A stretch of DNA of 45,171 bases, taken from Bryobacterales bacterium (GTDB lineage Bacteria > Acidobacteriota > Terriglobia > Bryobacterales > Bryobacteraceae). Below, in pieces: positions 18,983 through 39,832 of this stretch. The translations under genes were made by a program, and so were the position numbers. How positions within the stretch are numbered: the first letter of the stretch is position 1; each line of letters opens with the position of its first letter. The DNA is taken from assembly GCA_020851655.1 (NCBI GenBank), contig JADZCI010000057.1, positions 1 to 45,171 of the forward strand, read 5' to 3'. The notes under the pieces were generated by a model. That model was given only the letters and a program-made list of their open reading frames with translations, made no database searches and was not told the DNA's origin.

Positions 18983-18986
18983 CCAC

Positions 18987-20372: not shown

Positions 20373-20942
20373 ATGGCGGCCAAACTCCCCTTCATGGAAA
20401 CAAACGGCGACGAGCCGAAATACTACGCGGTGATGTCTGACTTCAACACGCCCGAAGATCTTCTGCGGGCAGTCCGCACGGCGCGAACCGCCGGCTACAC
20501 ACAACTCGAGGCGTTTTCGCCGTTTCCGATTCACGGCATCGATGAAGCGATGGGCGAAGGCCGTTCGCCGCTCGGCTGGATCGTCATTCTGTGCGCCTTG
20601 GCTGGCATTGCGCTCGCCATCCTCCTGCAGTGGTGGACCGGCGCCATTGACTACAAACTGGTGATCGCCGGGAAACCGCTATTCGCGCTCGAGCCTTCCG
20701 TGCCGATTATTTTTGAACTCGGTGTCCTGGTCTCGGCTTTCGGCGCGGTTATTGGAATGCTGGCGCTGAACAAGCTGCCTCAATACTGGCACCCGTTTTT
20801 CAACTACACGGCGCATGCCGGCGCCAGCAACGATCGTTTTCTGCTGGCCATCTCGGCCACCGATCCAAAGTTCAAGACGGATGAGGTCAAAGCGCTGCTC
20901 GACTCGCTCGGTGGCCGGAATACCGAACTGGTGGAGTCCTGA
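20373..20942 (+). CDS. actD: Alternative complex III subunit ActD (DUF3341)
   Basis: The 189-residue protein has a cytoplasmic N-terminal domain with a ferredoxin-like fold (YAVMSDFNTPEDLLRAVRTA onward), the segment SPFPIHGIDEAMG typical of DUF3341, and two membrane helices (about 63-83 and 105-130). In ACIII structures ActD is a small membrane subunit that packs against ActC and ActF. It has no cofactor motifs. It starts immediately after the actC stop codon, with no intervening base, and ends one base before actE. Confidence 0.92.
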   Translation: MAAKLPFMETNGDEPKYYAVMSDFNTPEDLLRAVRTARTAGYTQLEAFSPFPIHGIDEAMGEGRSPLGWIVILCALAGIALAILLQWWTGAIDYKLVIAGKPLFALEPSVPIIFELGVLVSAFGAVIGMLALNKLPQYWHPFFNYTAHAGASNDRFLLAISATDPKFKTDEVKALLDSLGGRNTELVES

Positions 20943-20943
20943 G

Positions 20944-21555
20944 ATGAAGATGATGTTGTGGCAAAAAGCAATGCTGGCCGCCTCCGGCGGGGTTCTTCTG
21001 GCGGGTTGTTCGAATTTTCCGGCGAGAAAACCGCCGGTTCTGGTATGGCCTGATATGAAATTCCAGGAGAAGTACAAGCCGCAGATGAAGTCCGAGTTTT
21101 TCTCAGACGGACGCGTCACCCGCCGGCCTGTCGCCAACACGATCGCCCTGGAGACCTACAAGGAAGACGAGGCGTACTCGACCGGACTGAATCCAGACAA
21201 CACGTACGTCGCGCGGAATCCGGAGCCGTTGAACAAGGAGACGTTGGAGCGCGGGCAGACGAAATTCAACATCTACTGCCAGCCCTGCCACGATAAGACC
21301 GGATCGGGCCGCGGCATTGTGCCCTCCAAGGCCATCTGGGTTCCCGGCAATATGCACGATGAACGTATCGTGAACTTTGTGGATGGCGAGATATTTCACG
21401 TCATCACCAACGGACGCCGGTCCATGCCCGCCTACCGCTTTCAGATTCCAGAGAAAGACCGCTGGGCCATTGTCGCCTACGTGCGGGCCTTGCAACGGTC
21501 CTGGCACGGCACGATGGCGGATGTTCCCGCCGACTTGCGGGAGAAAGTGAGATAA
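20944..21555 (+). CDS. actE: Alternative complex III monohaem lipoprotein cytochrome ActE
   Basis: The ATG at 20944 gives 203 residues with a lipoprotein signal (lipobox LLAGC, lipidated C22) and one CXXCH haem motif, CQPCH at 112-116. A methionine in MPAYRF downstream is a candidate sixth haem ligand. This is the monohaem, lipid-anchored cytochrome subunit of alternative complex III, facing the periplasm, and it may be the electron exit toward the caa3 oxidase. A more upstream start would run back into actD in another frame and spoil the signal peptide, so 20944 is preferred. Confidence 0.92.
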   Translation: MKMMLWQKAMLAASGGVLLAGCSNFPARKPPVLVWPDMKFQEKYKPQMKSEFFSDGRVTRRPVANTIALETYKEDEAYSTGLNPDNTYVARNPEPLNKETLERGQTKFNIYCQPCHDKTGSGRGIVPSKAIWVPGNMHDERIVNFVDGEIFHVITNGRRSMPAYRFQIPEKDRWAIVAYVRALQRSWHGTMADVPADLREKVR

Positions 21556-21559
21556 CGCC

Positions 21560-22765
21560 ATGGCGCAAGAACACCCTCATCAATCAGCCGCGGATAACTA
21601 CTTCCTGGCGCCGGGCATGTGGGCCACGGTCCGGAACGGGCTGGCCTTCCTGGCGCTGGCGGGCTGGATTGCTTCCATCGCGGGGTTTGCGACCAATCGC
21701 GAGCAGTTCCACTTTTCTTACCTCACCGCTTTCCTTTTCTGCGTCTCGATCGGGCTCGGAGCACTGTTCTTTGTGCTGGTGCAGCACTTGAGTGGATCGG
21801 CATGCAGTGTGACAGTCCGGCGCCTGGAAGAGTCGATCATGCGGACCCTCCCGTTCGGCGTGGTCCTGTTTGGACTGGTCGTGACGGGCATCCATTACAC
21901 CTATCACTGGAGCCATGAATCGGCCAAGACGGACGCGGTGTTGAAACAGAAACTCGCGTATCTGAATGCCGATTGGTTCACGATTCGCGGGGTGATTGTT
22001 TTTGGGCTTTGGACCATCTGGGCCCTGGTACTGTTCCGGAAATCGCGCGCCCAGGATGTGGACGGCGCCATCGCCCATACACGCAACCTGGTCAAGTGGA
22101 GCGCCCCCGGGTTGTTGCTCCTCTTCATCACGGCGTCAGTTGCGAGTTTTGACTGGATCATGTCTCTCGACCCGCACTGGTTTTCCACGATGTTCGGCGT
22201 GTACTTTCTCACCGGCGGCGGATTGGGTTTCATCGCGGTATTGATTCTGATATGCCTCGCGCTGCGCAACGCCGGCTACTTGAACAACGCCATTAACGAA
22301 GAGCACTATCACGACCTGGGCAAGTGGCTTTTCTGCATGACCGCCTTTTGGGGCTACATCGCATTCTCGCAGTACATGCTCATCTGGTACGGCAACCTGC
22401 CGGAAGAGATCTTTTGGTTCAAGAACCGGCTGGTGGGCAGTTGGGAGGGGATGGCGATCTTCCTGGTCTTCGGGCACTTCCTGATCCCCTTCTTTGCGCT
22501 GCTGCCGCGAGCCAGCAAACGGAACTTCAAGGTCCTGACGTTCTTTGCCGTCTGGCTGCTGGTGATGCACTATGCCGACATCTACTGGCAGGTCATGCCG
22601 GTATTGCACAAGAACGGCATCTCGCCGCACTGGTTGGATCTGGCGACCTTGGTTGCGCTGGTCTCCACGTTTGGGTTGATCTTCTGGGCGCAGTTGCGCG
22701 AAAGGCCGCTCGTCCCGGTCGGCGACCCGCGTCTGCGCCAATCCCTGGCTTTCCATAACGCGTGA
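21560..22765 (+). CDS. actF: Alternative complex III membrane subunit ActF
   Basis: This 401-residue protein has about ten membrane helices and resembles ActC, as expected for ActF, the second NrfD-like subunit of the complex. Recognisable stretches include TGIHYTYHWSHESAKTDAVL, SFDWIMSLDPHWFSTMFGVY and the region FSQYMLIWYGNLPEEIFWF. In solved ACIII structures ActF has no redox centre but has conserved charged residues proposed for proton movement. Its ATG lies 4 bases after the actE stop. The next gene follows 8 bases downstream. Confidence 0.92.
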   Translation: MAQEHPHQSAADNYFLAPGMWATVRNGLAFLALAGWIASIAGFATNREQFHFSYLTAFLFCVSIGLGALFFVLVQHLSGSACSVTVRRLEESIMRTLPFGVVLFGLVVTGIHYTYHWSHESAKTDAVLKQKLAYLNADWFTIRGVIVFGLWTIWALVLFRKSRAQDVDGAIAHTRNLVKWSAPGLLLLFITASVASFDWIMSLDPHWFSTMFGVYFLTGGGLGFIAVLILICLALRNAGYLNNAINEEHYHDLGKWLFCMTAFWGYIAFSQYMLIWYGNLPEEIFWFKNRLVGSWEGMAIFLVFGHFLIPFFALLPRASKRNFKVLTFFAVWLLVMHYADIYWQVMPVLHKNGISPHWLDLATLVALVSTFGLIFWAQLRERPLVPVGDPRLRQSLAFHNA

Positions 22766-22773
22766 GGAATACC

Positions 22774-23238
22774 ATGTCAGACACCAAGATTGCGCAGGTA
22801 AGTCCAGACCTTGGATATGACCGGCATCCGGCGAGCGCCAGGATCCTGGCGATCATCGGCTTCTCTACGGTGGCTCTTCTGGTAGCGATAATAGTAGGCG
22901 TCTGGGTGCTCTACGTTCTCGCCGAGCAGAAAGTGGAGGAAGAGCACGTCGGCAAAGTTTATAGCGATGAGTTGCGGGCGATTCATACCCGCGAAGAAGA
23001 GCAGTTGAACCACTACGGCTTTGTGGACAAGGAGCACGGAATCGTCCGGCTCCCGATCGACCGCTCGATGGAACTCCTCGCACAAGAGTATGCACAGGGC
23101 AAGACCGGCTACAACACTAAGACGTATCCGCTCCGTCCGGAGCAGCCGCAAGGCGCTCCCGGAACTCCCGCCGCGCCCGGAGGCGCCGCCGCTACGCCCG
23201 CTACACCTGGAGGTCAGACACCCGTTGCCAAACACTAG
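22774..23238 (+). CDS. Small membrane protein of the ACIII/caa3 operon, function unknown
   Basis: Starting at ATG 22774 behind GAGGAAT, this gives 154 residues. There is one membrane helix (about 30-53), then a charged periplasmic-type segment (EEEHVGKVYSDELRAIHTRE, HYGFVDKEHGIVRLPIDRSM) and a low-complexity tail rich in alanine, proline and glycine (last 40 residues). The segment LNHYGFVDKEHGIVRLPIDR is well defined and probably conserved. No haem or copper motif is present. Its place between actF and the SCO chaperone suggests a link between ACIII and oxidase assembly, or a subunit of the supercomplex (inference). A GTG at 22762 overlapping the actF stop is a less likely start. Confidence 0.8.
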   Translation: MSDTKIAQVSPDLGYDRHPASARILAIIGFSTVALLVAIIVGVWVLYVLAEQKVEEEHVGKVYSDELRAIHTREEEQLNHYGFVDKEHGIVRLPIDRSMELLAQEYAQGKTGYNTKTYPLRPEQPQGAPGTPAAPGGAAATPATPGGQTPVAKH

Positions 23239-24064
23239 GTTCATCGCCCGCCTTGTCATCGCCGCGGCGCTCGCCACTGGTTTCGCGTTCAGCGAATCGC
23301 CGGAAGAGCGCACCCCGCGCGAACTGGAAGGCGTCGGTGTCACCGAAAAGCTGGGCAATCCGGTTGACCTGAACCTGACGTTCATCGCCGAGAGCGGCTA
23401 CCCGGTTGCATTGAAGGAATACTTCAAGCCCGGCAAGCCGGTGATCCTCAATCTCGTCTATTACACCTGCCCCATGCTGTGCAATCTGGTGTTGAACGGG
23501 CAGACATCGATGTTCCGCGATCTGGATTGGAACGTGGGAGACAAGTTCGAAGTTGTCACCATCAGCATCGATCCAACGGAAAACTTCAAACTGGCACGCG
23601 ACAAGAAAGCGTTGTACCTGACCAGCTACGACCGTCCCACCACCGGATGGCACTTCCTGACCGACAACGGCGGCAACGTAAAGAAGTTGGCCGAACAGGT
23701 CGGGTTCAATTACCGCTTCGACGAGAAGATCGGCCAGTACGCGCACCCGGCGGTCATCTTTGTGCTGACGCCGGAAGGCAAGGTGGCGCGATATCTCTAC
23801 GGCACACGCTTCAAGACTTTCCAGGCGAAGATGGCGCTCACCGAAGCGGCCCAGGGCAAATGGGGCGTCACTTTTGAGCGTGTTCTCCTCTATTGCTTCC
23901 ACTACGATCCCGAGTCACGCTCCTACACGCTCTTTGCTCAAAATCTGATGCGGCTGGGCGGGGTGTTGACGCTGGCGATCCTGGTATTTGTGTTGATTCG
24001 TCTGTTCCGCCGCGAGCGGAGGTTCGCCTCAGCATCGCACCGAGGGTTGGTTACCACAAAATGA
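23225..24064 (+). CDS. SCO1/SenC-type copper chaperone for cytochrome oxidase
   Basis: The likely start is TTG 23225, with GGAGG at 23209-23213, overlapping the end of the preceding gene by 14 bases. This gives 279 residues. An N-terminal hydrophobic segment is followed by a thioredoxin-like SCO domain with the copper-binding CPMLC (C82, C86) and H174 in QYAHPAV. A membrane helix near the C-terminus (LGGVLTLAILVFVLIRLF) anchors it a second time, and is followed by a basic tail. SCO proteins deliver copper to, or reduce the thiols of, the CuA site of oxidase subunit II, which is encoded immediately downstream with an ATGA overlap. An upstream start in the same frame would lie inside the previous gene and is rejected. 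Confidence 0.88.
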   Translation: MPNTRFIARLVIAAALATGFAFSESPEERTPRELEGVGVTEKLGNPVDLNLTFIAESGYPVALKEYFKPGKPVILNLVYYTCPMLCNLVLNGQTSMFRDLDWNVGDKFEVVTISIDPTENFKLARDKKALYLTSYDRPTTGWHFLTDNGGNVKKLAEQVGFNYRFDEKIGQYAHPAVIFVLTPEGKVARYLYGTRFKTFQAKMALTEAAQGKWGVTFERVLLYCFHYDPESRSYTLFAQNLMRLGGVLTLAILVFVLIRLFRRERRFASASHRGLVTTK

Positions 24065-25002
24065 ACTGGTTTCGCGATTACCTGCTTGGCCCCCAGTCGG
24101 CGACGCACGCCACCGAGGTGGACAGTCTCTTCATGTTCATCGTCTACCTCACTATCTTTTTCTTCTTCTTCAACGGGGCGCTGATCTTCTATGCCGCCCG
24201 GCGGTGGCGCCGGAAATCAGACCGCGAAATAACGCCCCACATCACGCACAACACGAAGCTCGAACTGTTGTGGAGCCTGATCCCGGCCGTGGTGGTGTTT
24301 GTCGTCTTCTTTTGGGGGTTCAAGGGGTACGTCAGCGCGTTTATCCCTCCCAATGAAGCGCTGGAAATCGTGGTCACGGGCAAGAAGTGGGTGTGGCAAT
24401 TCGAGTATCCCGACGGAACCCGTTCTTTGAACGACCTCCACGTTCCGCTGAACCGGGATGTGAAGCTGGTGATGCATTCCGAAGACGTCATTCACAGTTT
24501 CTTTGTGCCGCGCTTCCGCCTGAAGCGTGATGTCATTCCGGGGCGCTACACGGAGTTGTGGTTCCGGGCGACTCAACCCGGGGTGCAGCAGGTGTTTTGC
24601 GCCGAGTACTGTGGCAAGGGACACTCCGACATGCTGGCCCGGATTTTTGTCGACACGCCGGAACAGTACGAAACCTTCCTGCGTGAAGGCGACGAGCAGA
24701 CGCGCACCATGCCGCTCGGCGAACTGGGCAGGCTGGTTTACGAAAACAAAGGCTGCGCCACCTGTCACTCCCTTGACGGCACGCGCGGCCAGGGGCCGAG
24801 CTTCAAGGGCATCTGGGGCCACCCGGCCGACGGCAGCGACGGCAAGAACTATGTGGTCGATGCGAACTATATCCGGCAGTCCATCCTGTATCCTCAGGCT
24901 GTCGTGGTGAAAGGGTTTGAACCGATCATGCCCACGTTTCAGGGTTTGCTCCGTGAACGCGAGATACTCGGCGTGATCGAGTACATCAAGTCATTGCAGT
25001 AA
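24061..25002 (+). CDS. coxB: caa3 cytochrome c oxidase subunit II with fused cytochrome c domain
   Basis: The ATG at 24061 overlaps the SCO stop and gives 313 residues. Two membrane helices (about 22-46 and 68-90) anchor a cupredoxin domain with the CuA ligands H145, C180, E182, C184, H188 and M191 (in the segment FCAEYCGKGHSDM). A C-terminal cytochrome c domain follows, with CATCH (232-236) and an axial methionine in EPIMPTF. This fusion defines a caa3-type oxidase, in which electrons enter through the attached haem c. Given its position after ACIII, electrons probably pass directly from ActA/ActE within a supercomplex. Confidence 0.94.
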   Translation: MNWFRDYLLGPQSATHATEVDSLFMFIVYLTIFFFFFNGALIFYAARRWRRKSDREITPHITHNTKLELLWSLIPAVVVFVVFFWGFKGYVSAFIPPNEALEIVVTGKKWVWQFEYPDGTRSLNDLHVPLNRDVKLVMHSEDVIHSFFVPRFRLKRDVIPGRYTELWFRATQPGVQQVFCAEYCGKGHSDMLARIFVDTPEQYETFLREGDEQTRTMPLGELGRLVYENKGCATCHSLDGTRGQGPSFKGIWGHPADGSDGKNYVVDANYIRQSILYPQAVVVKGFEPIMPTFQGLLREREILGVIEYIKSLQ

Positions 25003-25023
25003 AGGAGCAAAGGAGAGTCACCT

Positions 25024-26685
25024 ATGGAAAATGTCTCGTCCGCCACGCTACACGGTAGCGGCCATGCCGCCCACCACGGCGACTACCTCGAAGATCCCAA
25101 GGGATTGCGCTCCTGGCTGACCACCGTTGATCACAAGCGCATCGGCATCATGTACATGTGGTCGGTGATTTTCTTCATGGTCGTCGGCGGTCTGCTGGCC
25201 CTGCTTCTCCGGCTGGAACTGCTGACGCCGAAGCAGACCCTGATCACCGCGGAAATGTACAACCGGGTGTTCACGCTGCATGGAGCGGTGATGGTGTTCC
25301 TGGTCATCATTCCCGGCATCCCGGCCGCGCTGGGAAACTTCGCCTTGCCTCTGCTGCTGGGCGCCAAGGACGTCGCGTTTCCCCGGCTGAACCTGTTCAG
25401 CTACTACCTCTACGTCACCGGCGCTTTGATGGCGCTGTGCACCCTGTTGCTGGGTGGCGTCGACACCGGCTGGACCTTTTACACACCGTATTCCACCACC
25501 ACGGGTGGCGGCGTGACGCTGATGGTGCTGGCTGCGTTTGTCCTCGGGTTCTCGTCCATCTTCACCGGCGTCAACTTCATCGCGACCGTTCACACCTTGA
25601 GAGCGCCGGGTATGGGCTGGTTTGAGATGCCCCTGTTCTGCTGGAGCATGTATGCGACCGCCCTGATTCAGATTCTGGCGACACCGGTGCTCGGAATCAC
25701 TTTGCTTCTGCTGGTGATGGAGCGTGTCATGGGTGTCGGTATTTTCGATCCGCAGTTAGGCGGGGACCCGGTGCTGTTCCAGCATTTCTTCTGGTTCTAT
25801 TCACACCCCGCGGTCTACATCATGATTCTGCCGGCCATGGCGGTGATTTCCGAGGTGATCCCCACATTTTCAAAAAAGACCATCTTCGGGTATAAGGCCA
25901 TCGCATTCTCGTCCATCGCGATCGCGTTGCTCGGCTTTCTGGTCTGGGCGCATCACATGTTCACGGCGGGCATGAGCCTGTTTGCCGGCGCGATTTTCTC
26001 GTTCCTCACGTTCTTCATCGCGATTCCTTCGGCCATCAAGGTGTTTAACTGGATCGCCACGATGTGGCGCGGCTCGATTTCGCTTCGCGCGCCGATGATC
26101 TACGCGATCAGTTTTCTTCTGATGTTCACCATCGGCGGGTTGACCGGTTTGTTTCTGGCGTCGCTTGCGACCGACGTGCATCTGCATGACACCTATTTCG
26201 TGGTCGCGCACTTCCATTACGTGATGGCCGGCTCGAACCTGGTGGCGTTGCTGGCGGGGATTCACTACTGGTGGCCCAAAATGTTCGGCCGCATGTACAA
26301 CGACAAACTGGCCAGCGTTGGGGCGGCACTGGTCTTCCTCGGTTTCAACGCGACATTTCTTCCACAATTCGTGATGGGCAGCCGCGGGATGCCGCGCCGC
26401 TACTACAATTACCTGCCGGAGTTCCAAGGGCTGCACATCGCCTCCACGATCGGCTCGTGGATTCTAGCGAGCGGTTTGTTTCTCGGTTTGGCCGTGCTGA
26501 TCGCTTCGCTGATGAAGCCCAAAGAGCAACTGGCCCGCAATCCTTGGGGCGGACGCACGCTCGAGTGGGAAACGGCTTCTCCGCCAACCACGCACAACTT
26601 TGATGAACCCATCGCGCTCCGCCACGGACCCTATGACTATCGCCCCGTGGAAGAGATCGAGGCCAGTGAAGGAGTGACTCGCTAA
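25024..26685 (+). CDS. coxA: caa3 cytochrome c oxidase subunit I
   Basis: This 553-residue haem-copper oxidase subunit carries the binuclear haem a3-CuB centre that reduces oxygen to water and pumps protons. Clear signatures are the CuB/cross-link region [16 protein letters not shown] (about 255-270), the paired histidines in [12 protein letters not shown] and the haem-ligand region [18 protein letters not shown]. The segment YSHPAVY has the tyrosine-serine form of A2-type oxidases rather than the glutamate of A1 types, as in the Rhodothermus caa3 enzyme. A good ribosome binding site (AAAGGAGAG) precedes ATG 25024. Confidence 0.95.
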
Positions 26686-30695: not shown

Positions 30696-31052
30696 ATGCC
30701 GGAAGGTTACCTTCCCATCTTTATCTTCCTCGTCCTGGCCTTCTTGTTCCCCATCGCGCTGCTTTTGCTGGCGAAGTTCGTCCGGCCCGCGGCGCCCAAC
30801 CAAGTCAAACTCGAGGCGTACGAATGTGGCATTCAAGCTGCTTCAAACGCTCGTGGCCGGTATACGGTGCGGTTCTACATCATCGCCATTCTGTTTGTGA
30901 TCTTCGACGTGGAAACAGTGTTCCTGTTCCCGTGGGCGGTCCGGTACAAGCAGTTGGGATGGTTCGGTGTAGCCGAAGTCTCCGTGTTCCTGGCCATTTT
31001 GGTGGTTGGCTATATCTGGGCCTACAAGAAGGGAGCCCTTGAATGGGTTTGA
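30696..31052 (+). CDS. nuoA: NADH-quinone oxidoreductase subunit A
   Basis: This 118-residue membrane protein with three helices (about 6-28, 62-84 and 90-110) matches NuoA of respiratory complex I. The diagnostic EAYECGIQ segment lies at about residues 43-50, in the loop that helps couple quinone reduction to proton pumping. FYIIAILFVIFDVETVFLFP covers the second helix. It is alone: no nuoB or other nuo gene follows. Its last 10 bases overlap the start of a secreted Solibacter_C protein in another frame. The rest of complex I must lie elsewhere, or this is a second copy (inference). Confidence 0.92.
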   Translation: MPEGYLPIFIFLVLAFLFPIALLLLAKFVRPAAPNQVKLEAYECGIQAASNARGRYTVRFYIIAILFVIFDVETVFLFPWAVRYKQLGWFGVAEVSVFLAILVVGYIWAYKKGALEWV

Positions 31053-32770
31053 CCGGAATTAAACAAACTTCTACATTTCTGTGTTTTTTTGTTTTGCCCG
31101 CGGCGGCTTGGGCGGCGCCGAAGTTGCGTCTAACCGCTACAACCGTGGGTCCGCTTTCCATAGCGTCGAACTCGAATGGGACGCTTCAAACGGTGGAGGC
31201 GTATAACGCCGGTGATGGCGCCCTGGCGCTCACCGCCACCGCGAACGTCACGTGGCTGACGGCTTCAACGGGTTCGCTCTCGGCTTGCGCATCACGTCCT
31301 GGACAGTGCATTCCTGTTCGAATCGAGCCGAAGACGTCCTCTCTGGCGAAGGGCACATACACAGCGGTCGTGACCGTCGCCGACCCCGCCGCGCAAGACG
31401 CTCCGCAAACGATCACGGTAACGGTGAAGGTGGGTGGAGGCGTGCCCGACCGCGTGGAGTCCTACGTCGCTCCGGGCAACGTTGGCGAAGTCCCGTTTAC
31501 CGCCAACAACGCTCTAACGGAACCCATACGGGCTCAAAGCGACGGATGGTTGTCTGTCGCTTCGGAGGCGGGTGGGACGTATCGTACCGTGTGGAATTAC
31601 CGCTACCGGCTCGACGCCCGCGGCAAGGGCGAAGGGGCGTACAACGGCACGGCTACCATCAGCGGGTCGAAGGTCGCCGAAGAGAACAAGACGACGCAAG
31701 TGGTCATGCGCGTCACCAACAGCCCGATCCTTCGACTCGATAAGGACGCCGTTTCGATCCGCGCCACACAAGGCGCATGGCCGATTGACGCGTTCGTCTC
31801 CTGGTCGAATACCGGCGGCGGCACAATCAAGTTCTCCTCATTTTCCATAGCGCCGGCCGGCGGAGACTGGCTGAAAGTGAGCGCGGTCGAAGGCACGCCG
31901 TACCTGATGTTCACGGCGACTCCCGGCGCCCTGTCGCCCGGTGTCTACACCGCGCAGGTGACCATCAACTCAAATTCGGTAAACTCCGGTGTCGTGTTAC
32001 CAGTTCAGTTGGAATTGCTGGCGCAGTCAGCTCCGCGAGCGGCATTCGGGCGCATCCAAAATGTGGGCAGCTACGACCCGGCGGATCCGCTCGCTCCCGG
32101 AACCTGGGTGGAACTCTACGGCGAGCAATTCTTCTACAAGGAGCCCGTTACGGCCGCGGCGCCGTTTCCCGATTCGCTCGCGGGCGTCAGAGTGCTGGTG
32201 AATGGGCGCGCGGCGCCGCTCTGGTATGTCCGGTATAACCAGATCAACTTCCAAATCCCGTACGAGACGGCGCCCGGAGACGGATCCGTCACTGTGGAAC
32301 GCGAGGGCCAGAAGGGTAATTCCATCTCCATTGCGGCAGTGTCTTCCGCCCCGCGCATCCGCCGGCTTGGCATCGCCGATTACGGGATCATCGTGAACAA
32401 TACGGATGGTTCATTTCCCATGCCGCCCACGCCCGGTCTGAATGCCCGTCCGGTGCGCCGTGGCGAAGCCCTGGTGATCTATATGGTCGGCTTTGGACAG
32501 ACGAATCCGCCCGTGGCTAGTGGCGCTCCGGCGCCGGCTCAGGAACCGCTCGCGCGCGTGTCCGGCGACCCGGTCCGGGTCACGTTCGGCAGCGGTCTTT
32601 TCGGCGGCATCACCGTCGATTCGCTCTTTGCGGGCTTAACGCCCAACTACTCCGGACTCTACCAGGTCAACGTCATCGTTCCCGCCAACGCTCCTGTTGG
32701 CGATGAAGTGCCGCTGATAGTGCAACAAGGCGCTCAAGTCAGCAACTCCGTTCGCGTCGCGATTCAATGA
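31043..32770 (+). CDS. Secreted protein with BACON-like domains and Solibacter_C terminal domain
   Basis: The 575-residue protein has a signal peptide (about 1-24). Two or three Ig-like BACON-type repeats follow, with the usual WLTAS and WLKVSAVEG motifs at about 70-330, then a roughly 230-residue C-terminal domain of the Solibacter_C type (TIGR03437). Its signatures are APGTWVELYGEQF, VRYNQINFQIPYE and YQVNVIVPANAPVGDEVPL. This domain is frequent in Solibacter relatives and rare elsewhere, which supports the taxonomic placement. Its function is unknown; attachment to carbohydrate or the cell surface is a guess. The gene overlaps nuoA and its stop overlaps the alaX-like start (ATGA). Confidence 0.87.
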   Translation: MGLTGIKQTSTFLCFFVLPAAAWAAPKLRLTATTVGPLSIASNSNGTLQTVEAYNAGDGALALTATANVTWLTASTGSLSACASRPGQCIPVRIEPKTSSLAKGTYTAVVTVADPAAQDAPQTITVTVKVGGGVPDRVESYVAPGNVGEVPFTANNALTEPIRAQSDGWLSVASEAGGTYRTVWNYRYRLDARGKGEGAYNGTATISGSKVAEENKTTQVVMRVTNSPILRLDKDAVSIRATQGAWPIDAFVSWSNTGGGTIKFSSFSIAPAGGDWLKVSAVEGTPYLMFTATPGALSPGVYTAQVTINSNSVNSGVVLPVQLELLAQSAPRAAFGRIQNVGSYDPADPLAPGTWVELYGEQFFYKEPVTAAAPFPDSLAGVRVLVNGRAAPLWYVRYNQINFQIPYETAPGDGSVTVEREGQKGNSISIAAVSSAPRIRRLGIADYGIIVNNTDGSFPMPPTPGLNARPVRRGEALVIYMVGFGQTNPPVASGAPAPAQEPLARVSGDPVRVTFGSGLFGGITVDSLFAGLTPNYSGLYQVNVIVPANAPVGDEVPLIVQQGAQVSNSVRVAIQ

Positions 32771-33924
32771 CGAAGCGGCTCTATTACACGGATTCCTACT
32801 TGCGTGAGTTTTCGGCGGAGGTTCTCGAATCGTCGCCGGATGGCCTCACCGTCTACCTCGATCAGACCGCGTTCTACCCGGCTTCAGGTGGGCAGCCGAA
32901 CGATCTGGGAAAGCTCGGAGGCGTTGATGTCATCGACGTGATCGATGAAGGCAGCCGGATTGGGCACCGGGTTGCCGCACCAATCGGGGCGCGTGCGGTT
33001 GCCGGCGCGATTGATTGGACGCGGCGGTTCGATTTCATGCGGCAGCACACTGGACAGCACCTCCTGTCGGCGGTCTTGGAAGAGATGTTCCGGTTTAGCA
33101 CCATTAGCGTGCACTTTGGCAGCGAAGTCAACACGGTCGATCTTGAGACCGGATCCATCACGGATGACCAGATCCGCGAGGCCGAACTGCGGGCCAACGC
33201 CATCGCCGCCGAGAACCGCCCGGTCAGCGTCACGTTCGAACAGCACTCCATGGCGGCAGGCTTGCGTAAGGCGTCCGAGCGCGAAGGCGAGCTTCGGATC
33301 GTCGGCATCGAGGGGCTCGACCGCTCCGCGTGCGGAGGCACTCACGTGCGCTCGACTGGTGAGATTGGCGCCATCCTGATACGGAAGCAGGACAAGATCC
33401 GGGGCAATGTCCGGCTGGAGTTCGTCTGCGGGGCGCGCGCGGTGCGCCGGGCGCGCCGGGACTTCGATGCCCTCTCGCAGATCGCCCGGATCTTTTCGGC
33501 GCCGCTCGATGACGCCCCGGCGCTGGTGTCCTCCCAAGCCGGGCACTTGCGCGAGTCGGCCAAGCTGAACCGCAAGATGGGAATCGAGCTCGCGCAGCGG
33601 CGAGGCAAGGAGCTTTACAGCGCTTGTACACCGGATGCCACGGGCAGGCGTTTCCATGTCGAACAGGCCGGCGCTCTGGATGACGAGATCAGGACACTGG
33701 CCCAGAGCTTTACCGCCCAACCCAACGCCGCCTTTGTCGCCACGGCGGGAAACTCCGTCCTCCTGGCGGTGTCGGCGGATTCCGGAATTCACGCCGGCAA
33801 CCGCCTGAAGGCCGCTCTGTTGGTGGCGCAAGGGCGCGGCGGCGGCAACGCCCAACTGGCGCAGGGCAGCGTGCCAACTCCCGAAGCGGCCGCGGCTCTG
33901 GCGGAATCGCTACTGCGGGAATAG
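32767..33924 (+). CDS. Alanyl-tRNA editing protein (AlaX-like, with DHHA1 domain)
   Basis: The 385-residue protein resembles the editing half of alanyl-tRNA synthetase. It has an N-terminal barrel with FYPASGGQPNDLG and a zinc site formed by H94 and H98 (HTGQHLLSA) and C189 and H193 (CGGTH). The C-terminal DHHA1 region has the glycine-rich motif AQGRGGGNAQLAQG. Such free-standing proteins hydrolyse tRNA-Ala wrongly charged with serine or glycine. There is no aminoacylation domain. It is unrelated in function to its operon partners. Its 3' end overlaps the convergent permease gene by 15 bases. Confidence 0.9.
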   Translation: MTKRLYYTDSYLREFSAEVLESSPDGLTVYLDQTAFYPASGGQPNDLGKLGGVDVIDVIDEGSRIGHRVAAPIGARAVAGAIDWTRRFDFMRQHTGQHLLSAVLEEMFRFSTISVHFGSEVNTVDLETGSITDDQIREAELRANAIAAENRPVSVTFEQHSMAAGLRKASEREGELRIVGIEGLDRSACGGTHVRSTGEIGAILIRKQDKIRGNVRLEFVCGARAVRRARRDFDALSQIARIFSAPLDDAPALVSSQAGHLRESAKLNRKMGIELAQRRGKELYSACTPDATGRRFHVEQAGALDDEIRTLAQSFTAQPNAAFVATAGNSVLLAVSADSGIHAGNRLKAALLVAQGRGGGNAQLAQGSVPTPEAAAALAESLLRE

Positions 33925-34983
33925 CGGCGCCATCGAAACCAGCGCCAGCCCCGAAGCAAACAAGATCAGCAACAGGACAATGAAGGCATTCACCTTCGAG
34001 GTGCTGCCCGCAAACTCTTTCCACAGCAGCAGCCCCCACAACGTACTCACCAACGCCGCGCCCTGGCCGATGGCGTAGCTCACCGCGCCGCCCACCTGCA
34101 CGCGCTGAGGCGCGCTGGCCGCCAGAAAGTTGGTGATTGCGCCAATGGACCAAATCACGCCGCCGAGCACACCGAGCAGGTGCTGGCGCGCGGTCCCGGC
34201 AAAGTAGTCCCGGAAGCCCACAGGGGGGCCTTCGACGGGCAGGTTCATAAAGAACAAGTTGAAGAAGAACGTGCTGAGCAGGACGCCGAGAGAAAACAAG
34301 AACGCCGCCGAGTAGGGTCCGACGCCGAAGTCACCCATCTTGGCGTATTCCAGAATCGGATAGAACAGGCCCATCAACAAGCCCGCCGCCAGGCTCAGGA
34401 CAATTCCTTTGAACGGACTCTTACGCTGGTGGCGCGGGTCGCGGCGTGCGCTCTCGTCTGGCGGCGCCATCTTCGATTTCTGATGTGCGGAGTGCGCCAT
34501 CGCCGTGACAATGATGGCGGCCAGAACCAATGCCACGCCCGCGAACAGGAGATACGGATTGCCGTTGGCCTTGGGCTTGAGCCAGAAATTCAGCAGCACG
34601 CCGATGATGAGTGCCAGCCCGATTCCGACGGGAAAGGCGACCGAAAGCCCGGCCACGGTGATGGCGGCGACCAGCAGCATGTTTGCCAGGTTAAAGATGC
34701 CACCGCTTGCAAATGCCAGGAACATCCGGCCCCGCGCCGCGATGTCCATGTTCTCGAGGAAGCCGAAATTTGTTGCGGGGGTGTCTCCGCCGCCGGGCCC
34801 GTAACTGCCAAAGGTGAACGCGGCGACGACGGCCGCGAGGAAGACCCCAAAGGAATAGTCGAAGTAGAATAATTCGAAGCGCCACTTGCCGGTCATCTTC
34901 GCGGTGTTGGCCCATGAACCCCAACACAGCATCGAAACAACCGTCAGCAGGAGCGCCGTCAGGTAGCTAGTAGGAATCATCAT
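33910..34983 (-). CDS. GRP/ureide-permease-like DMT-family transporter
   Basis: This protein of about 357 residues starts at the paired methionines encoded at 34983 and has about ten membrane helices with an internal repeat, the layout of the drug/metabolite transporter superfamily. The early motif MLCWGSWANTAKM followed by WRFELFYFDYSFG resembles GRP-type sugar permeases and bacterial relatives of plant ureide permeases. The centre has a hydrophilic loop of about 30 residues (HQKSKMAPPDESARRDPRHQ). The substrate cannot be assigned; glucose, rhamnose and ureides are all transported by relatives. It is divergent from the TPR-protein gene. Confidence 0.8.
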   Translation of the reverse strand: MMIPTSYLTALLLTVVSMLCWGSWANTAKMTGKWRFELFYFDYSFGVFLAAVVAAFTFGSYGPGGGDTPATNFGFLENMDIAARGRMFLAFASGGIFNLANMLLVAAITVAGLSVAFPVGIGLALIIGVLLNFWLKPKANGNPYLLFAGVALVLAAIIVTAMAHSAHQKSKMAPPDESARRDPRHQRKSPFKGIVLSLAAGLLMGLFYPILEYAKMGDFGVGPYSAAFLFSLGVLLSTFFFNLFFMNLPVEGPPVGFRDYFAGTARQHLLGVLGGVIWSIGAITNFLAASAPQRVQVGGAVSYAIGQGAALVSTLWGLLLWKEFAGSTSKVNAFIVLLLILFASGLALVSMAPLFPQ

Positions 34984-35072
34984 GGCTGATATGCGTTCTT
35001 CAGGCTCGACCGTAAGCCCCGAACTCTGTACTATATAACAACGACTAGACTTCCCCTGGGAGGCAAAGTACC

Positions 35073-36215
35073 GTGACGATGACACGTTTTCTACTGTGTG
35101 TGACGATGGCCGCCATAAGCGCCTTGGCGCAGCGCCATAAGTTTGATCTGAATGCTTCGACTCCGGAAGGGAAACTCCTTCAGGATGCCGCGCAGGCTAC
35201 CGGCGATGCCACGAAGATCAAGCTTTACAGCGAATTCCTGGAGAAGAACCCCAAGCATCAGGCGGCGGCCTGGGTTTACGACCAACTGGTTCCGCTGTAC
35301 CTGAAGGCGGGTGAGTTAGACAAGACCATCGCGGGCGCCGAGGCCGCGCTGGCGCTTGACCCGGCCAATCCGGTCATCGCCTACCAGGCCTTACAGGCCA
35401 GCGAGCAGAAGAAAGATTTTGAGGCCGTGAAGAAGTGGTCCGCTGCGACCGACGAGGCCGCCAAGAAGGTTCTGGCGCTACCCAAACCTACCGACGAGGA
35501 GGAAGTCGAATTCTGGAAACGGGACGTTGATTACTCGCAGCAGGTGATCAAGAGAACCGAGTACAGCCTTTACGCCGCCATGCTCCAGAGCAATGACCCC
35601 AAGGTTCAGATCGCGCTGTACGAGGAATTGCAGCGGCGGAATCCCAAGAGCGAATACATGCCTCAAGCGGCGGGCCGCGCCTTTCTCGCGCTTCGGCAGA
35701 CCGGTCAGGAAGACGCCGCGTTTCGCCTCGCCGAGAGTACTCTGGCGACGGACCAGAGCAATGAAGACATGCTTGCCGTAGCAGCCAGCCGGTACATGGA
35801 TCCCAAGACGAAAGATCCGGCCAAGTCGCTCGCCTATGCGGCCAAGCTGGTGGAAGTCATGAATTCCAAGCCGGCGCCGGAGGGTGTTCCGGCGGCCGAT
35901 TGGGAGAAGAAGAAGAATTCGCTCGTCGGTCTGGGGTATTGGATTCAAGGTATGAATTACGGAACTCAGAGCAACTGGTCGCAGAGCGACAAGGCGTTTC
36001 GCGCGGCGCTGCCGATGATCCAGGGCAACAACGAGTTGCTCGCCCCAGCCTACTTCTATCTGGGGCTGGCGAACTACCGCATGGGCGAAGGCCCCAAGGG
36101 TAACAAGGCGTTGTTGGCGGAAGCCCGCAAGTTCAACCACGCATGCGCTGCGATCAAGGGGCCGTATCAGGCTCAGGCACAAAAGAATCTTGTCGCGATG
36201 GGCGCGGGGCGATGA
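35073..36215 (+). CDS. Secreted TPR-repeat protein
   Basis: The GTG at 35073 is chosen because GGGAGG (35058-35063) lies 9 bases upstream; an ATG two codons later is possible. The 380-residue product has a short signal peptide (about 1-19) and consists of helical repeats of the TPR type, for example AAWVYDQLVPLYLKAGELDK followed by AGAEAALALDPANP, and a final SDKAFRAALPMIQGN with AYFYLGLANYRMGEGPKG. TPR proteins hold complexes together, so this may organise periplasmic proteins. Its stop overlaps the acetate kinase start (ATGA), but a functional link is unclear. An AT-rich stretch at about 35029-35040 may hold its -10 element. Confidence 0.82.
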   Translation: MTMTRFLLCVTMAAISALAQRHKFDLNASTPEGKLLQDAAQATGDATKIKLYSEFLEKNPKHQAAAWVYDQLVPLYLKAGELDKTIAGAEAALALDPANPVIAYQALQASEQKKDFEAVKKWSAATDEAAKKVLALPKPTDEEEVEFWKRDVDYSQQVIKRTEYSLYAAMLQSNDPKVQIALYEELQRRNPKSEYMPQAAGRAFLALRQTGQEDAAFRLAESTLATDQSNEDMLAVAASRYMDPKTKDPAKSLAYAAKLVEVMNSKPAPEGVPAADWEKKKNSLVGLGYWIQGMNYGTQSNWSQSDKAFRAALPMIQGNNELLAPAYFYLGLANYRMGEGPKGNKALLAEARKFNHACAAIKGPYQAQAQKNLVAMGAGR

Positions 36216-37312
36216 ACATACTGGTACCCAACCTGGGGTCGACTTCCCTCAAGTACCAGATTCTCGAGATGCCTGATGAGCGGATACTCGCTCGCGGACG
36301 CTACGAACGCGTCTCCGATTACCGGACGGCGATCGAAGGGATTCGGTCCGGCGACACGCGAGTAGACGCCGTGGCGTTCAAAGCCGTTCACGGCGGGCCA
36401 AAGTATCGCGGGACCTTCGTCATTGACGACGATGTGGTCGCGGCGCAAACGGAGTTCCTGCTGGCCGCTCCCTTGCATAACCGGATTTACCTGGATGCCA
36501 TGGCCGCCTTTCGGGACGCCATGCCGGGGGTGCCGCTGGTGGCCGCGTTCGAGACCGAGTTTCACCGGACCATTCCAGATTCCGCGCGCTGGTACGGCGT
36601 CCCGTCGGAGTGGCGCACCCACTACGGCGTCGAGCGCTACGGCTTCCATGGCGCTTCACACCAATTTGTCGCCGGGCGCGCTCCGGTCATCGCCGGACTT
36701 CCTGTAACGGTCCGAATCGTGAGCTGCCACTTGGGCGGAAGTTCATCGATCTGCGCCATCAACGGGGGGCGTTCCGTCGACACGACGATGGGGTTCTCAC
36801 CGCAATCGGGACTCGAGAACGCCACCCGCCACGGCGACCTTGACCCGTTTGCCGTCCTGTACATGATGGATCGCGTGGGCTGGTCCACCTCGGAGGTTCG
36901 CGAGCAACTGGCCCAGGTATCGGGTTTGGCCGGGATCTCGGGGGTGGCGGGCGGAGATTGCCGCGACATCGAAGCCTCGGCTGGCGCGGGTAACCGGAAC
37001 GCGGCTCTCGCGCTCGAGATTTTTACCCTTGAAGTACGGAAGACCATTGGCGCCTACGCGGCGGCGATGGGCGGGCTCGACCTAGTCGCCTTCACCGGCG
37101 GGATCGGTGAAAATTCCGCCGACTTGCGCGAACGCTGTTGCCACGGCCTGGAATTCCTGGGAATTCACCTGGATTGCCAGGCCAACCATGCTGGCTCGGG
37201 AGACCGCCTTGTTTCTCGGCCGGATTCACAAGTAAGAGTGGTTGCGATGACGACCAATGAAGAACTGATCGTCGCGCGCCGCGCTTACCGGACCTTGAAC
37301 CATTCCGCTTGA
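36212..37312 (+). CDS. ackA: Divergent acetate kinase
   Basis: This 366-residue protein belongs to the acetate/butyrate kinase family. It keeps the ATP and phosphate motifs NLGSTSLK (7-14), VHGG (59-62), PLHN (87-90), GFHGASH (144-150), TRHGDLDP (205-212), FTGGIGEN (294-301) and TNEE (348-351). Compared from memory with the Methanosarcina enzyme, several active-site positions differ: R91 becomes K57, D148 becomes E114, and N211-G212 become G176-S177. It is about 40 residues shorter, mainly before VHGG. Convergent with phosphoketolase, it probably turns acetyl phosphate plus ADP into acetate plus ATP. A preference for another acyl phosphate is possible. Confidence 0.82.
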   Translation: MNILVPNLGSTSLKYQILEMPDERILARGRYERVSDYRTAIEGIRSGDTRVDAVAFKAVHGGPKYRGTFVIDDDVVAAQTEFLLAAPLHNRIYLDAMAAFRDAMPGVPLVAAFETEFHRTIPDSARWYGVPSEWRTHYGVERYGFHGASHQFVAGRAPVIAGLPVTVRIVSCHLGGSSSICAINGGRSVDTTMGFSPQSGLENATRHGDLDPFAVLYMMDRVGWSTSEVREQLAQVSGLAGISGVAGGDCRDIEASAGAGNRNAALALEIFTLEVRKTIGAYAAAMGGLDLVAFTGGIGENSADLRERCCHGLEFLGIHLDCQANHAGSGDRLVSRPDSQVRVVAMTTNEELIVARRAYRTLNHSA

Positions 37313-37315
37313 GTG

Positions 37316-39751
37316 TTAGTGTGGCCACGTCCAGCCGGCGGCAGCCGGATCGTCGACGCCGTGCTCGTACGCATAGCGGCGGCATTCGATCTGACGCTTG
37401 CGGAGATGTTCTTTGGCGTGAGCGCCGATCCTCTGCAATCGCGGAGTCCGGTCGATGACATCCATTGCCAGACTGAAACGGTCGATCTCGTTGTTGATCG
37501 CCAGTTCCAGTGGAGTGTTGATATTGCCTTTTTCCTTGTAGCCCCGCACGTGCAGGTTGGCATGATTCCTGCGCCGGTAGGCTAAGCGGTGAATCAGCCA
37601 CGGGTACCCGTGGAAGTTGAAGATGATCGGCTTATCGGTCGTGAACAAGGTATCGAATTCGCGGTCGCTCAGCCCGTGCGGATGTTCGCTCGATGGCTGT
37701 AGCTTGAAGAGATCGACGACATTGATGTAGCGGATTCTGACGTCGGGAAACTCGTCGCGCAGCAGGCAAATGGCCGCCAGGGTTTCCTTGGTTGGTATGT
37801 CGCCGGCCGAAGCCATCACGACATCCGGTTCAACGCCCTCGTCGTTGCTGGCCCAACCCCAGATACCGATGCCCTTGGAACAGTGAATAATGGCCGCGTC
37901 CATGTCCAGGTATTGCAGGTGCATTTGCTTGTCGGACACAATGACGTTGACATAGTTCTCCGACCGCAGGCAGTGATTCGCGGTGGATAAGAGGCAATTC
38001 GCATCCGGGGGCAGGTAGATGCGCGTGACCGCCGCGCTCTTGTTTACGACAACGTCGAGGAACCCCGGGTCCTGGTGGGTAAAGCCGTTGTGATCCTGCC
38101 GCCACACCGTCGAAGTGATCAGCAGGTTCAACGAAGCGATCTCTTCACGCCACGAGAGGTGGCGGCAAATGGAGAGCCACTTGGCGTGCTGGTTGAACAT
38201 CGAGTCGATGACGTGTACAAACGCCTCGTAGCTGGAAAGGAAGCCGTGGCGTCCAGTGAGGAGATAGCCCTCCAACATGCCCTCGACCGTGTGTTCGCTC
38301 AGCATTTCCACCACGCGTCCGTCGGGAGCGAGTTCTCCGCCGTCCAGATCTTCCGGGAAGTAGCTCGCCGCCCAGAATTTCTTGCTGACCTCATAGATCG
38401 CGTCCAGCTTGTTCGAGGTGTTCTCGTCCGGACCGAACACGCGGAAGCTCGACATGTTGCGCTTCATGACATCGCGCAGGAACTTGCCCAACGGACGCGT
38501 GTTCTCGGCTTCGATCCTGCCCGGCTGTTCGACCTTCACGGCATAGTCTTCGAAAGCGGGGAGGCGCAACGGACGCTTCAGTATCCCGCCGTTGGCGTGG
38601 GGGTTGGAGCCCATGCGGTGAGTGCCGGTGGGCGCCAGCGCCTTCAGTTCCGGCTTCAACGCACCCTTCTCGTCGAAAACTTCTTCCGGATGCTGGTCCT
38701 TCATCCATTGTTCAAGGAGGCGCAGAGTCTCCGGGTTCTTCTTGACGTCCGCCAGCGGCACCTGGTGCGCGCGCCAGAAACCTTCCAGGTAGTGATTGCC
38801 CACGTGTCTCGGGGCGCCCCAGCCTTTCGGCGAGCGAAGGACAATCATCGGCCAGCGCGGACGCTTGACAATGCCGGATTCGCGCGCCTCCCGTTGGGCC
38901 CACTGGATCTCCCGAACGCAATGCTCCAGGGTCGTGGCCATCGCCTGGTGCATGCTCTCCGGTTCCGACCCCTCCACGAAGTACGGTGTCCAGCCGTAAC
39001 CCTCGAACAGGCTCTTCACCTCGTCGTGACTGATTCGCGCGAGCAAGGCCGGATTGTTGATTTTGTATCCATTCAAATGGAGGATGGGGAGCACCGCGCC
39101 ATCGCGAATCGGGCTTAGAAACTTGTTGATGTGCCAGGAGGTAGCCAGCGGTCCGGTCTCGGCCTCACCGTCGCCGACCACGGCGGCGGCGATCAGCGCG
39201 GGGTTGTCGAAGGCCGCGCCACAGGCGTGCGACAGGACGTAACCCAGTTCGCCACCCTCGTGAATGGATCCTGGCGTTTCCGGCGTGCAGTGGCTTCCGA
39301 TTCCGCCCGGAAACGAAAACTGCTTGAAGAATTCCTTCAGTCCTTCCTCGTCCTGGCTCTTGTCCGGATAGATCTCCGAGTAGGAACCCTCCAGGTAGAC
39401 AGGACCCAGAACACCGGGCGCGCCATGACCAGGACCGGCGAGGTAGATCATGTCGAGGTCGTATTTCCTGATGACGCGGTTCAGGTGCGTGTAGATGAAT
39501 GACAAGCCGGGGCTGGAGCCCCAATGGCCCAGCAGGCGGTTCTTGATGTGCTCGGGTTTGAGAGGTTCGCGCAGCAGCGGGTTGTCCTGGAGATAAATCA
39601 TCCCGAGGCTCAAATAGTTCGCCGCCCGCCAGAACGCATCGATGCGGGCAAGTTCCGCCGGGTCGAGAACCGCTCCGCTCACTGTGGAGCGGGCGATACC
39701 GTACGGACTGATTGCGGCAAGTTCCTGATCGGTCTGAAGCGCAGGTGTCAT
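37316..39751 (-). CDS. xfp: Xylulose-5-phosphate/fructose-6-phosphate phosphoketolase
   Basis: The ATG at 39751 follows GAGGAGG with good spacing and gives 811 residues, normal for the family. Motifs of this thiamine-diphosphate enzyme are [45 protein letters not shown] and [17 protein letters not shown]. It cleaves xylulose 5-phosphate or fructose 6-phosphate with phosphate into acetyl phosphate and a shorter sugar phosphate, the key step of the phosphoketolase pathway. The acetate kinase encoded convergently, 3 bases away, would then conserve the energy as ATP. The expression region carries nested inverted repeats (39773-39832). Confidence 0.95.
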
Positions 39752-39772
39752 CCAAGCCCTCCTCAAGGCATC

Positions 39773-39832
39773 TAATTGGATGATAGCCAACAGCTCTCGA
39801 CGGGCGCAAAGATGCGCCGCGACAACCAATTA
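39773..39832. repeat. Nested inverted repeats around the xfp promoter
   Basis: The inner repeat GGCGCA, 4 bases, TGCGCC (39803-39818) overlaps the -35 box. An outer pair TAATTGG (39773-39779) and CCAATTA (39826-39832) brackets the promoter, with the first arm at the predicted transcription start. Arrangements like this often bind repressors, but no regulator gene is adjacent. Confidence 0.45.
39780..39809 (-). promoter_or_regulatory. Predicted promoter of xfp
   Basis: On the minus strand TTGCGC (39804-39809), 18 bases, TATCAT (39780-39785) resembles a sigma-70 promoter with a good -10 and a modest -35. The leader would be about 22 bases. The inverted repeat at 39803-39818 covers the -35. Confidence 0.4.

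What the first reader, a model, noticed from the sequence alone, without database searches (positions are those of the whole stretch)
36212..37312. Acetate kinase with changed active-site residues
Relative to the well-studied enzyme, from memory, the catalytic arginine, aspartate and the N-G phosphate-contact pair appear as lysine, glutamate and G-S, and about 40 residues are missing before VHGG. The other motifs remain, so the protein is probably active but with altered substrate or kinetics, perhaps specialised to work with phosphoketolase.
Basis: partly seen in the sequence, partly recalled or inferred. Interest (0 to 1): 0.5.

Follow-up and report, generated by a model that had tools for sequence, protein, structure and literature searches.

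The report
Acetate-kinase relative with rewired active site
This gene belongs to a separate, well-preserved branch of the acetate kinase family in the soil bacteria called Acidobacteriota, with several catalytic residues swapped together and with relatives encoded beside protein compartments thought to break down sugars, so it is probably a working enzyme with a changed job rather than a dedicated partner of the neighbouring phosphoketolase.

Summary
The 366-aa ORF at 36212-37312 is an acetate-kinase-family protein with Lys for Arg91, Glu for Asp148 and Gly-Ser for Asn211-Gly212 (M. thermophila numbering). LOOP3 (Met238-Gly239) is also changed, to Asn-Ala. The gap before VHGG is 34 residues, not 40, and such gaps also occur in ordinary enzymes. 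It is not a private oddity: 116 loci from eleven Acidobacteriota family groups carry the same four residues. Of 44 comparison kinases none has the Lys, Glu or Ser, and no mixed form was seen. A tree without those columns still separates the sets (SH-aLRT 100). Selection is purifying. A phosphoketolase link is not supported: adjacency was seen only in this window, presence shows no positive association, and phosphoketolase often sits near another acetate-kinase gene (at least 31 of 65 genomes). Relatives sit in microcompartment operons (PduL, acylating aldehyde dehydrogenase, class II aldolase, shell genes), after a phosphotransacylase, or after a TPR gene, as here. Best reading: an active acyl-phosphate kinase subfamily, ancestrally of a PVM-like (deoxysugar) microcompartment; the window copy is a shortened, relocated member. 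Substrate and activity are untested.

The parts
36212..37312 (+). Acetate/propionate-kinase-family protein, 366 aa, K/E/GS subfamily
   Evidence: AlphaFold model pLDDT 84.9, pTM 0.86, best solved match M. thermophila acetate kinase Z 39.5
36230..36253 (+). PHOSPHATE1 segment N7-L-G-S10-T11-S12-L-K14: canonical N, S, S and K kept; T11 is typical of the subfamily
36314..36361 (+). Approximate place of the shortened N-terminal region (34 residues fewer than M. thermophila between N7 and residue 91)
36380..36382 (+). K57, in place of catalytic Arg91
   Evidence: shared by 116 loci
36551..36553 (+). E114, in place of Asp148 (taken to be metal-binding Asp150 in S. typhimurium AckA numbering)
   Evidence: role from PMC3475010 passage
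36737..36742 (+). G176-S177, in place of Asn211-Gly212 of PHOSPHATE2
   Evidence: role from PMC4390882
36818..36829 (+). LOOP3 N203-A204-T-R206: Met238-Gly239 changed, Arg241 kept
   Evidence: Gly239-Asn211 hydrogen bond from PMC4390882
35073..36215 (+). TPR-repeat protein whose stop overlaps the kinase ATG by 4 bp (ATGA); the commonest upstream partner of the short form
   Evidence: TPR gene upstream in 50 of 75 short-form loci with over 1 kb upstream, 4-bp overlap in 37 of 52 TPR hits
37316..39829 (-). Phosphoketolase (XFP), convergent neighbour, 3 bp between stop codons; judged incidental
33910..35085 (-). Ureide-permease/RhaT-like transporter, divergent; relatives near the kinase in five other loci

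Best explanation
The protein is a functioning acyl-phosphate:ADP (ATP:carboxylate) kinase of a distinct Acidobacteriota subfamily of PF00871, marked by a co-fixed set of active-site residues: K91, E148, G211-S212, usually a changed LOOP3, and Q233. Arg->Lys and Asp->Glu keep charge while shifting side-chain length in opposite directions. Asn211 and its H-bond partner Gly239 changed together in the window and most relatives. The ADENOSINE pocket and Arg241/His180/Glu384 are intact. This reads as a re-tuned phosphoryl-transfer site using ATP/ADP, not a dead enzyme. The subfamily's likely ancestral post is a PVM-like microcompartment operon: class II aldolase makes an aldehyde (lactaldehyde in PVM compartments), CoA-acylating dehydrogenase makes acyl-CoA, PduL makes acyl phosphate, and this kinase makes the acid plus ATP. 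The window's copy is a relocated, N-terminally shortened member, translationally coupled to a TPR gene. Shown: residues, one side of a tree branch, purifying selection, operon contexts of relatives, lack of phosphoketolase linkage. Inferred: activity, ATP as donor, substrate, direction, microcompartment ancestry, and that the short form still serves the scattered compartment genes of this genome.
For: 116 loci with the same four residues, no mixed states against 44 canonical. Tree without the four columns: the split of 52 against 32 rows has SH-aLRT 100. dN/dS about 0.04-0.19 in 12 informative pairs (two further pairs were identical; dS above 1 in four pairs). Catalytic N7, H123, H180, R241, E384 and ADENOSINE residues kept. 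Operon contexts: PduL in the stretch with the kinase in 17 loci, 16 of them also with BMC-H and/or BMC-T genes (L107 shows PduL only, on a 6 kb stretch; in L089 they lie on the other strand); phosphotransacylase directly upstream in 10 loci. 64 of 64 kinase-bearing family genomes have BMC shell genes, 23 of 37 kinase-less genomes have none. The window genome has class II aldolase+BMC-H, aldehyde dehydrogenase+BMC-H, BMC-T+PduS-like and BMC-T+DHDPS pairs on four contigs. Lactyl-CoA, lactyl-phosphate, lactate named for PVM-type compartments in PMC8857213 (passage).
Against: No enzymology. Arg91 is called catalytically essential in canonical enzymes: R91A leaves 0.3-0.6% activity (PMC6461089 passage; R91K data not seen in any text read). 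Single N211A, G239A changes cost M. thermophila enzyme 6-15-fold. The window genome has no PduL match and its kinase is not in a shell-gene locus, so the compartment role of the short form rests on co-occurrence, which shared descent could partly produce. 88 of 153 class genomes with shell genes lack a kinase match at the cut-off used, and one kinase genome (G196) has no shell gene; G019 and G097 have 6 and 4 BMC domains without the kinase. 4 of 17 PduL genomes had no kinase match at that cut-off. Context differs between branches (BMC, HMGL-PTA, E3-LipB-E2, TPR), so one substrate for all is doubtful. Position 122 of the acyl pocket is Leu in the window, Ala or Val in most relatives.
Confidence: 0.6

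Rival explanations
1. An ordinary acetate kinase paired with the neighbouring phosphoketolase, converting its acetyl phosphate to acetate and ATP.
For: Phosphoketolase is the next gene, 3 bp between stop codons; an acyl kinase would act on acetyl phosphate in principle; neither of the two other acetate-kinase genes of this genome lies on the phosphoketolase contig.
Against: Convergent genes; no other K/E/GS locus held has an adjacent phosphoketolase (L183 has one about 4 kb off, on the other strand). No positive co-occurrence: 36/28/29/8 over 101 genomes. In at least 31 of 65 phosphoketolase genomes a different acetate-kinase-family gene lies close to it.
Confidence: 0.12
2. A kinase re-purposed in the short-form lineage, no longer tied to a microcompartment, acting with the co-translated TPR protein or with acetyl-CoA metabolism (E2/E3 genes beside it in the sister group).
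For: TPR gene upstream in 50 of 75 short-form loci, mostly with a 4-bp overlap; E3-LipB-E2-kinase order in 5 of 6 f2 loci; no PduL in the window genome.
Against: The K/E/GS residues are unchanged from the compartment-encoded relatives, and shell genes were found in all 64 kinase-bearing family genomes.
Confidence: 0.35
3. A catalytically impaired or regulatory pseudo-kinase that binds but does not turn over.
For: Substitution of residues described as essential or activity-lowering in M. thermophila and P. gingivalis enzymes.
Against: Other catalytic residues kept; purifying selection; phosphotransacylase-kinase and PduL-kinase operons in relatives.
Confidence: 0.1
4. A kinase with another phosphoryl donor, such as pyrophosphate, like the Entamoeba enzyme.
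For: PHOSPHATE2 and LOOP3, which contact or position the beta-phosphate side, are among the parts rewritten.
Against: ADENOSINE Gly331-Ile332 and the adenine-pocket Asp283/Arg285 are kept, and PHOSPHATE2 has no extra residue, unlike EhACK.
Confidence: 0.06

Closest known systems
Acetate kinase AckA (Methanosarcina thermophila, 1TUU/1G99; PF00871, TIGR00016)
   Same: Fold (Z 39.5, 2.9 A over 339 residues), nucleotide pocket, His180, Arg241, Glu384, hydrophobic pocket
   Different: Arg91, Asp148, Asn211-Gly212 and Met238-Gly239 replaced; 34 residues fewer in the N-terminal domain
PduW propionate kinase of the propanediol microcompartment (Klebsiella, 7FJ7)
   Same: Best Foldseek hit; a kinase of a microcompartment (recalled); shares the PQSG motif with Q233
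   Different: PduW keeps Arg, Asp and Asn-Gly at the changed positions
PVM and PVM-like microcompartments, including the two loci of Solibacter usitatus (PMC4207490)
   Same: Class II aldolase and shell genes; PVM loci list an acetate kinase among ancillary genes (passages)
   Different: The window kinase is not in such a locus; the residue set was not mentioned in the passages read; sequences of PVM kinases were not available to test
ACI microcompartments of Acidobacteria (PMC8217296)
   Same: Acidobacterial, class II aldolase, aldehyde dehydrogenase on a satellite locus (passage)
   Different: The word kinase does not occur in that paper's main text; relation to the loci here not tested
PPi-dependent acetate kinase of Entamoeba histolytica
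   Same: Natural change at the Asn211 and Gly239 positions
   Different: EhACK's Gln-Met ADENOSINE change and extra PHOSPHATE2 Gly are absent here

Membership tests
Acetokinase family (PF00871 / TIGR00016) | Profile score over the curated cut-off | tested here: met
   PF00871 324 bits (cut-off 22), TIGR00016 312 bits (cut-off 293.4)
Acetokinase family (PF00871 / TIGR00016) | Acetate kinase fold | tested here: met
   Model pTM 0.86; Z 39.5 to 1G99
Canonical acetate kinase catalytic set | Asn7, His123, His180, Arg241, Glu384, Asp283, Arg285, Gly331 | tested here: met
Canonical acetate kinase catalytic set | Arg91, Asp148, Asn211-Gly212, Gly239 | tested here: not met
   K, E, G-S, A
Canonical acetate kinase catalytic set | ATP:acetate phosphotransferase activity | not testable with these tools
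   needs purified protein
Propionate kinase equivalogs of NCBIfam | Score over cut-off of PRK12379 (propionate kinase) or PRK12397 (acetate/propionate family kinase) | tested here: not met
   248 of 580 and 311 of 659 bits
Butyrate kinase | TIGR02707 score over cut-off | tested here: not met
   50 of 289 bits
PPi-dependent acetate kinase | Gln-Met at 331-332 and one extra PHOSPHATE2 residue | tested here: not met
   Gly-Ile kept, no insertion
PVM-like microcompartment kinase | Encoded in a locus with shell genes, aldolase, aldehyde dehydrogenase, PduL | tested here: not met
   Window gene: the six BMC domains of this genome lie on four other contigs and no PduL match was found. Met by relatives on other branches
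PVM-like microcompartment kinase | PVM kinases of Planctomycetes/Verrucomicrobia share the residue set | not tested
   No sequences of those phyla could be reached
Phosphoketolase-partner acetate kinase | Conserved adjacency or co-occurrence with XFP | tested here: not met

The most novel reading that the evidence does not exclude
The K/E/GS proteins are dedicated 2-hydroxyacyl-phosphate (lactyl-phosphate) kinases: the last, ATP-yielding step of deoxysugar microcompartment catabolism in Acidobacteriota. The coupled Arg/Lys-Asp/Glu swap and the enlarged pocket (Ala122 in 65 of 106) would fit an alpha-hydroxy acid, and the family would show that 'essential' Arg91 can be replaced when the whole site is re-tuned.
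Probability: 0.2. Interest if true: 0.6.

Novelty: new variant of a known kind. Interest (0 to 1): 0.45.

Why it matters
Acetate kinase is a textbook enzyme whose Arg91 is described as catalytically essential. Here a subfamily found in eleven family groups of a major soil phylum has replaced Arg91, Asp148 and Asn211-Gly212 together and kept them fixed under purifying selection. That offers a natural experiment on how the ASKHA acyl-kinase site can be re-tuned. It also gives a four-residue marker that separates these proteins from canonical acetate kinases in annotation, and a testable candidate for the last step of acidobacterial microcompartment metabolism.

Tried and rejected
Phosphoketolase partnership: rejected. 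Deletion as the defining trait: rejected; K/E/GS members run from 48 to 83 residues between N7 and residue 91, and canonical ones from 37 to 94. PduL as partner in the window genome: none found. PduL was found in 17 of 399 class genomes.

Viral contigs scan with the subfamily alignment A2: 61 pattern stretches, no relative. Plasmid collection: 382 records matched the window protein, best listed identity 42%; the nine fetched are all Arg/Asp. The genus holds only this genome, so phosphoketolase adjacency could not be checked in close kin. Planctomycetes and Verrucomicrobia PVM kinases could not be reached; whether K/E/GS exists outside Acidobacteriota is open. One genome contigs record labelled Thermoleophilia (L057) carries a 67%-identical copy; a misbinned contig is the likely cause, not tested.

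Limits of the counts: the lists for searches were typed by hand from the listings. Of the 64 kinase-bearing family genomes, 47 were checked by residue; 17 were assigned by score alone. Of the 28 other family genomes with a weaker match, 21 were checked by residue (all Arg/Asp) and 7 assigned by score. The phosphoketolase set is 65 genomes: 11 of the 76 with only weak matches were left out. Of the 31 acetate-kinase genes near phosphoketolase, 8 were checked by residue (all Arg/Asp). G226 was dropped from the class list because its match proved canonical. Class genomes were scored at E <= 1e-84 with the window protein, so more distant K/E/GS members may be counted as absent, and not every class match was checked by residue. 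The '3 or more BMC domains' split was chosen after seeing the data. Fisher p values ignore shared descent. Some of the 116 loci are the same organism fetched from two collections (77 short-form loci hold 65 distinct kinase proteins). Grouping by the four residues is circular for those columns; the tree without them (quick method, SH-aLRT only) and the lack of mixed states are the independent points. The greedy gene calling was spoilt by long spurious opposite-strand ORFs, so contexts were redone by homology.

Papers, what was seen: PMC4390882 parts 1-2 of 4; passages of PMC5517563, PMC4207490, PMC8217296, PMC3475010, PMC6461089, PMC8857213; PMC4500148 searched, no hit. Other papers were seen only as search listings. 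That no paper was found describing this residue set rests in an open-licence library only.

Full report
1. What is there. The ORF at 36212-37312 (+) encodes 366 aa, a member of PF00871 and above the TIGR00016 cut-off. LOOP3 Met238-Gly239 is also changed, to Asn203-Ala204. PMC4390882 (parts 1-2 of 4 read) reports that Asn211 contacts the beta-phosphate and hydrogen-bonds Gly239, so two contact partners changed together. The missing stretch is 34 residues. Everything else that was checked is canonical: Asn7, Ser10, Ser12, Lys14, His123, His180, Arg241, Asp283, Arg285, Gly331, Ile332, Asn335, Glu384. The genome carries two further acetate-kinase genes. Both have Arg91, Asp148, Gly212 and an unchanged LOOP3; one has Asn and the other Ser at 211.

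2. Not a private mutation. Relatives were collected in the family, class and phylum. Of the sequences compared, 106 and 10 more from five further family groups carry all four residues. The groups are f1, f2, f5, f8, f10, f11, f33, f50, f66, f76 and f85. Thr11, Ser231 and Gln233 go with them in all of the first 106; among the ten deeper ones Thr11 and Ser231 vary, Gln233 does not. Identity to the window alone does not define the set: two matches at 45% identity (L106, L110) are canonical. The comparison set of 44 includes E. coli AckA and TdcD, nine plasmid kinases from several classes and paralogues from the same genomes. All 44 have Arg91, Asp148 and Gly212. Asn211 alone does vary there (37 of 44 Asn). 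Solved-structure sequences printed, including Klebsiella PduW, are canonical too. A tree of 84 proteins, built with the four columns blanked, puts the 52 K/E/GS rows on one side of a branch with SH-aLRT 100. Twelve informative gene pairs give dN/dS of about 0.04-0.19. So this is an old, constrained subfamily, not decay.

3. Fold. The AlphaFold model (pLDDT 84.9, pTM 0.86; region 194-210, which holds LOOP3, under 50) matches acetate and propionate kinases throughout. With so similar an alignment the active-site geometry cannot be judged from it.

4. Neighbours. The window's phosphoketolase (37316-39829, -) is convergent. Among 61 K/E/GS loci it is seen only in the window; among ten, one (L183) has a phosphoketolase match in two pieces about 4 kb away on the other strand. 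Flanks differ in length, so this is a statement about the stretches held. Across 101 family genomes phosphoketolase shows no positive association with the kinase (36/28/29/8; Fisher p 0.03 in the negative direction; by genus 32/19/17/8, p 0.8). In at least 31 of the 65 phosphoketolase genomes a different acetate-kinase-family gene lies 37-4086 bp from the phosphoketolase match; the eight of them checked by residue are Arg/Asp.

5. What the relatives sit beside. (a) PduL with the kinase in 17 loci, groups f1, f5, f10, f11, f50, f66, f76 and f85. The fullest layouts hold PduS-like, BMC-T, kinase, PduL, BMC-H copies, acylating aldehyde dehydrogenase and class II aldolase; order varies between groups, and some stretches show only part. 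(b) A 2-isopropylmalate-synthase-like HMGL protein and a phosphotransacylase directly upstream in ten loci, groups f5, f8 and f33. (c) E3-LipB-E2 upstream in five of six f2 loci. (d) In the short form, a TPR gene upstream in 50 of 75 loci with over 1 kb upstream, usually with a 4-bp ATGA overlap, exactly as in the window. Contexts a and b would supply an acyl phosphate, which is what such a kinase uses.

6. Microcompartment link of the short form. In 101 family genomes the kinase was never found without a BMC shell gene (64 both, 0 kinase only, 14 shell only, 23 neither; by genus 51/0/10/15). In 399 class genomes it is 65/1/88/245. The window genome has six BMC domains on four contigs, beside a class II aldolase, an aldehyde dehydrogenase, a PduS-like protein and a DHDPS-family protein, but no PduL match. 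PMC4207490 describes two PVM-like loci in Solibacter usitatus whose products might together make one organelle (passage). PVM compartments degrade fucose and rhamnose through lactaldehyde, with lactyl-CoA, lactyl-phosphate and lactate named as intermediates (PMC8857213 passage). Co-occurrence may partly reflect shared descent: shell-gene pairs are common in the class, one kinase genome (G196) lacks them, and G019 and G097 have several shell genes without the kinase.

7. Mechanism. Most likely an active ATP/ADP-dependent acyl kinase. Arg91 and Arg241 bind the acid's carboxyl group and R91A nearly abolishes activity (PMC6461089 passage); Asp150 of S. typhimurium AckA, taken to be Asp148 here, is listed as metal-binding (PMC3475010 passage). 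Replacing Arg by Lys and Asp by Glu keeps both charges; all members changed both, which suggests compensation. This last step is inference. Pocket residue 122 is Ala in 65, Val in 21, Leu in 19 and Thr in 1 of 106, the window among the Leu, so an enlarged pocket is not universal. PPi use is unlikely because the ADENOSINE motif is intact.

8. Verdict. New variant of a known kind. Substrate unknown; lactyl phosphate is the boldest reading still open.

Noticed in passing
window 35073-36215: TPR protein with what looks like a signal peptide (read from the sequence, not predicted by a tool), overlapping the gene of a presumably cytosolic kinase in many short-form loci; an odd pairing without explanation.
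   Followed up: partly
window 33910-35085 (-): Ureide-permease/RhaT-like transporter divergent from the TPR-kinase pair; relatives near the kinase in L034, L037, L038, L043 and L079.
   Followed up: partly
L083-L087 (f2 genomes): Kinase directly follows E3-LipB-E2 genes of a 2-oxoacid dehydrogenase; L034 has the same genes beside the kinase in convergent orientation.
   Followed up: partly
L090-L094, L096, L186-L189: HMGL-like (2-isopropylmalate-synthase-like) gene, phosphotransacylase and K/E/GS kinase in a row: a possible three-gene pathway of unknown substrate.
   Followed up: no
L158:1010-2667: BMC-T shell gene beside a DHDPS-family protein in the window's genome.
   Followed up: no
window 15761-26685: Fe-S, NrfD, ActD, cytochrome c and COX1 genes, read as an alternative complex III plus oxidase cluster.
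   Followed up: no
window 31043-32770: Protein with the Solibacter C-terminal domain TIGR03437, fitting a Bryobacteraceae/Solibacter origin.
   Followed up: no
L057: Record labelled Thermoleophilia carries a 67%-identical short-form kinase; probably a misbinned contig.
   Followed up: no
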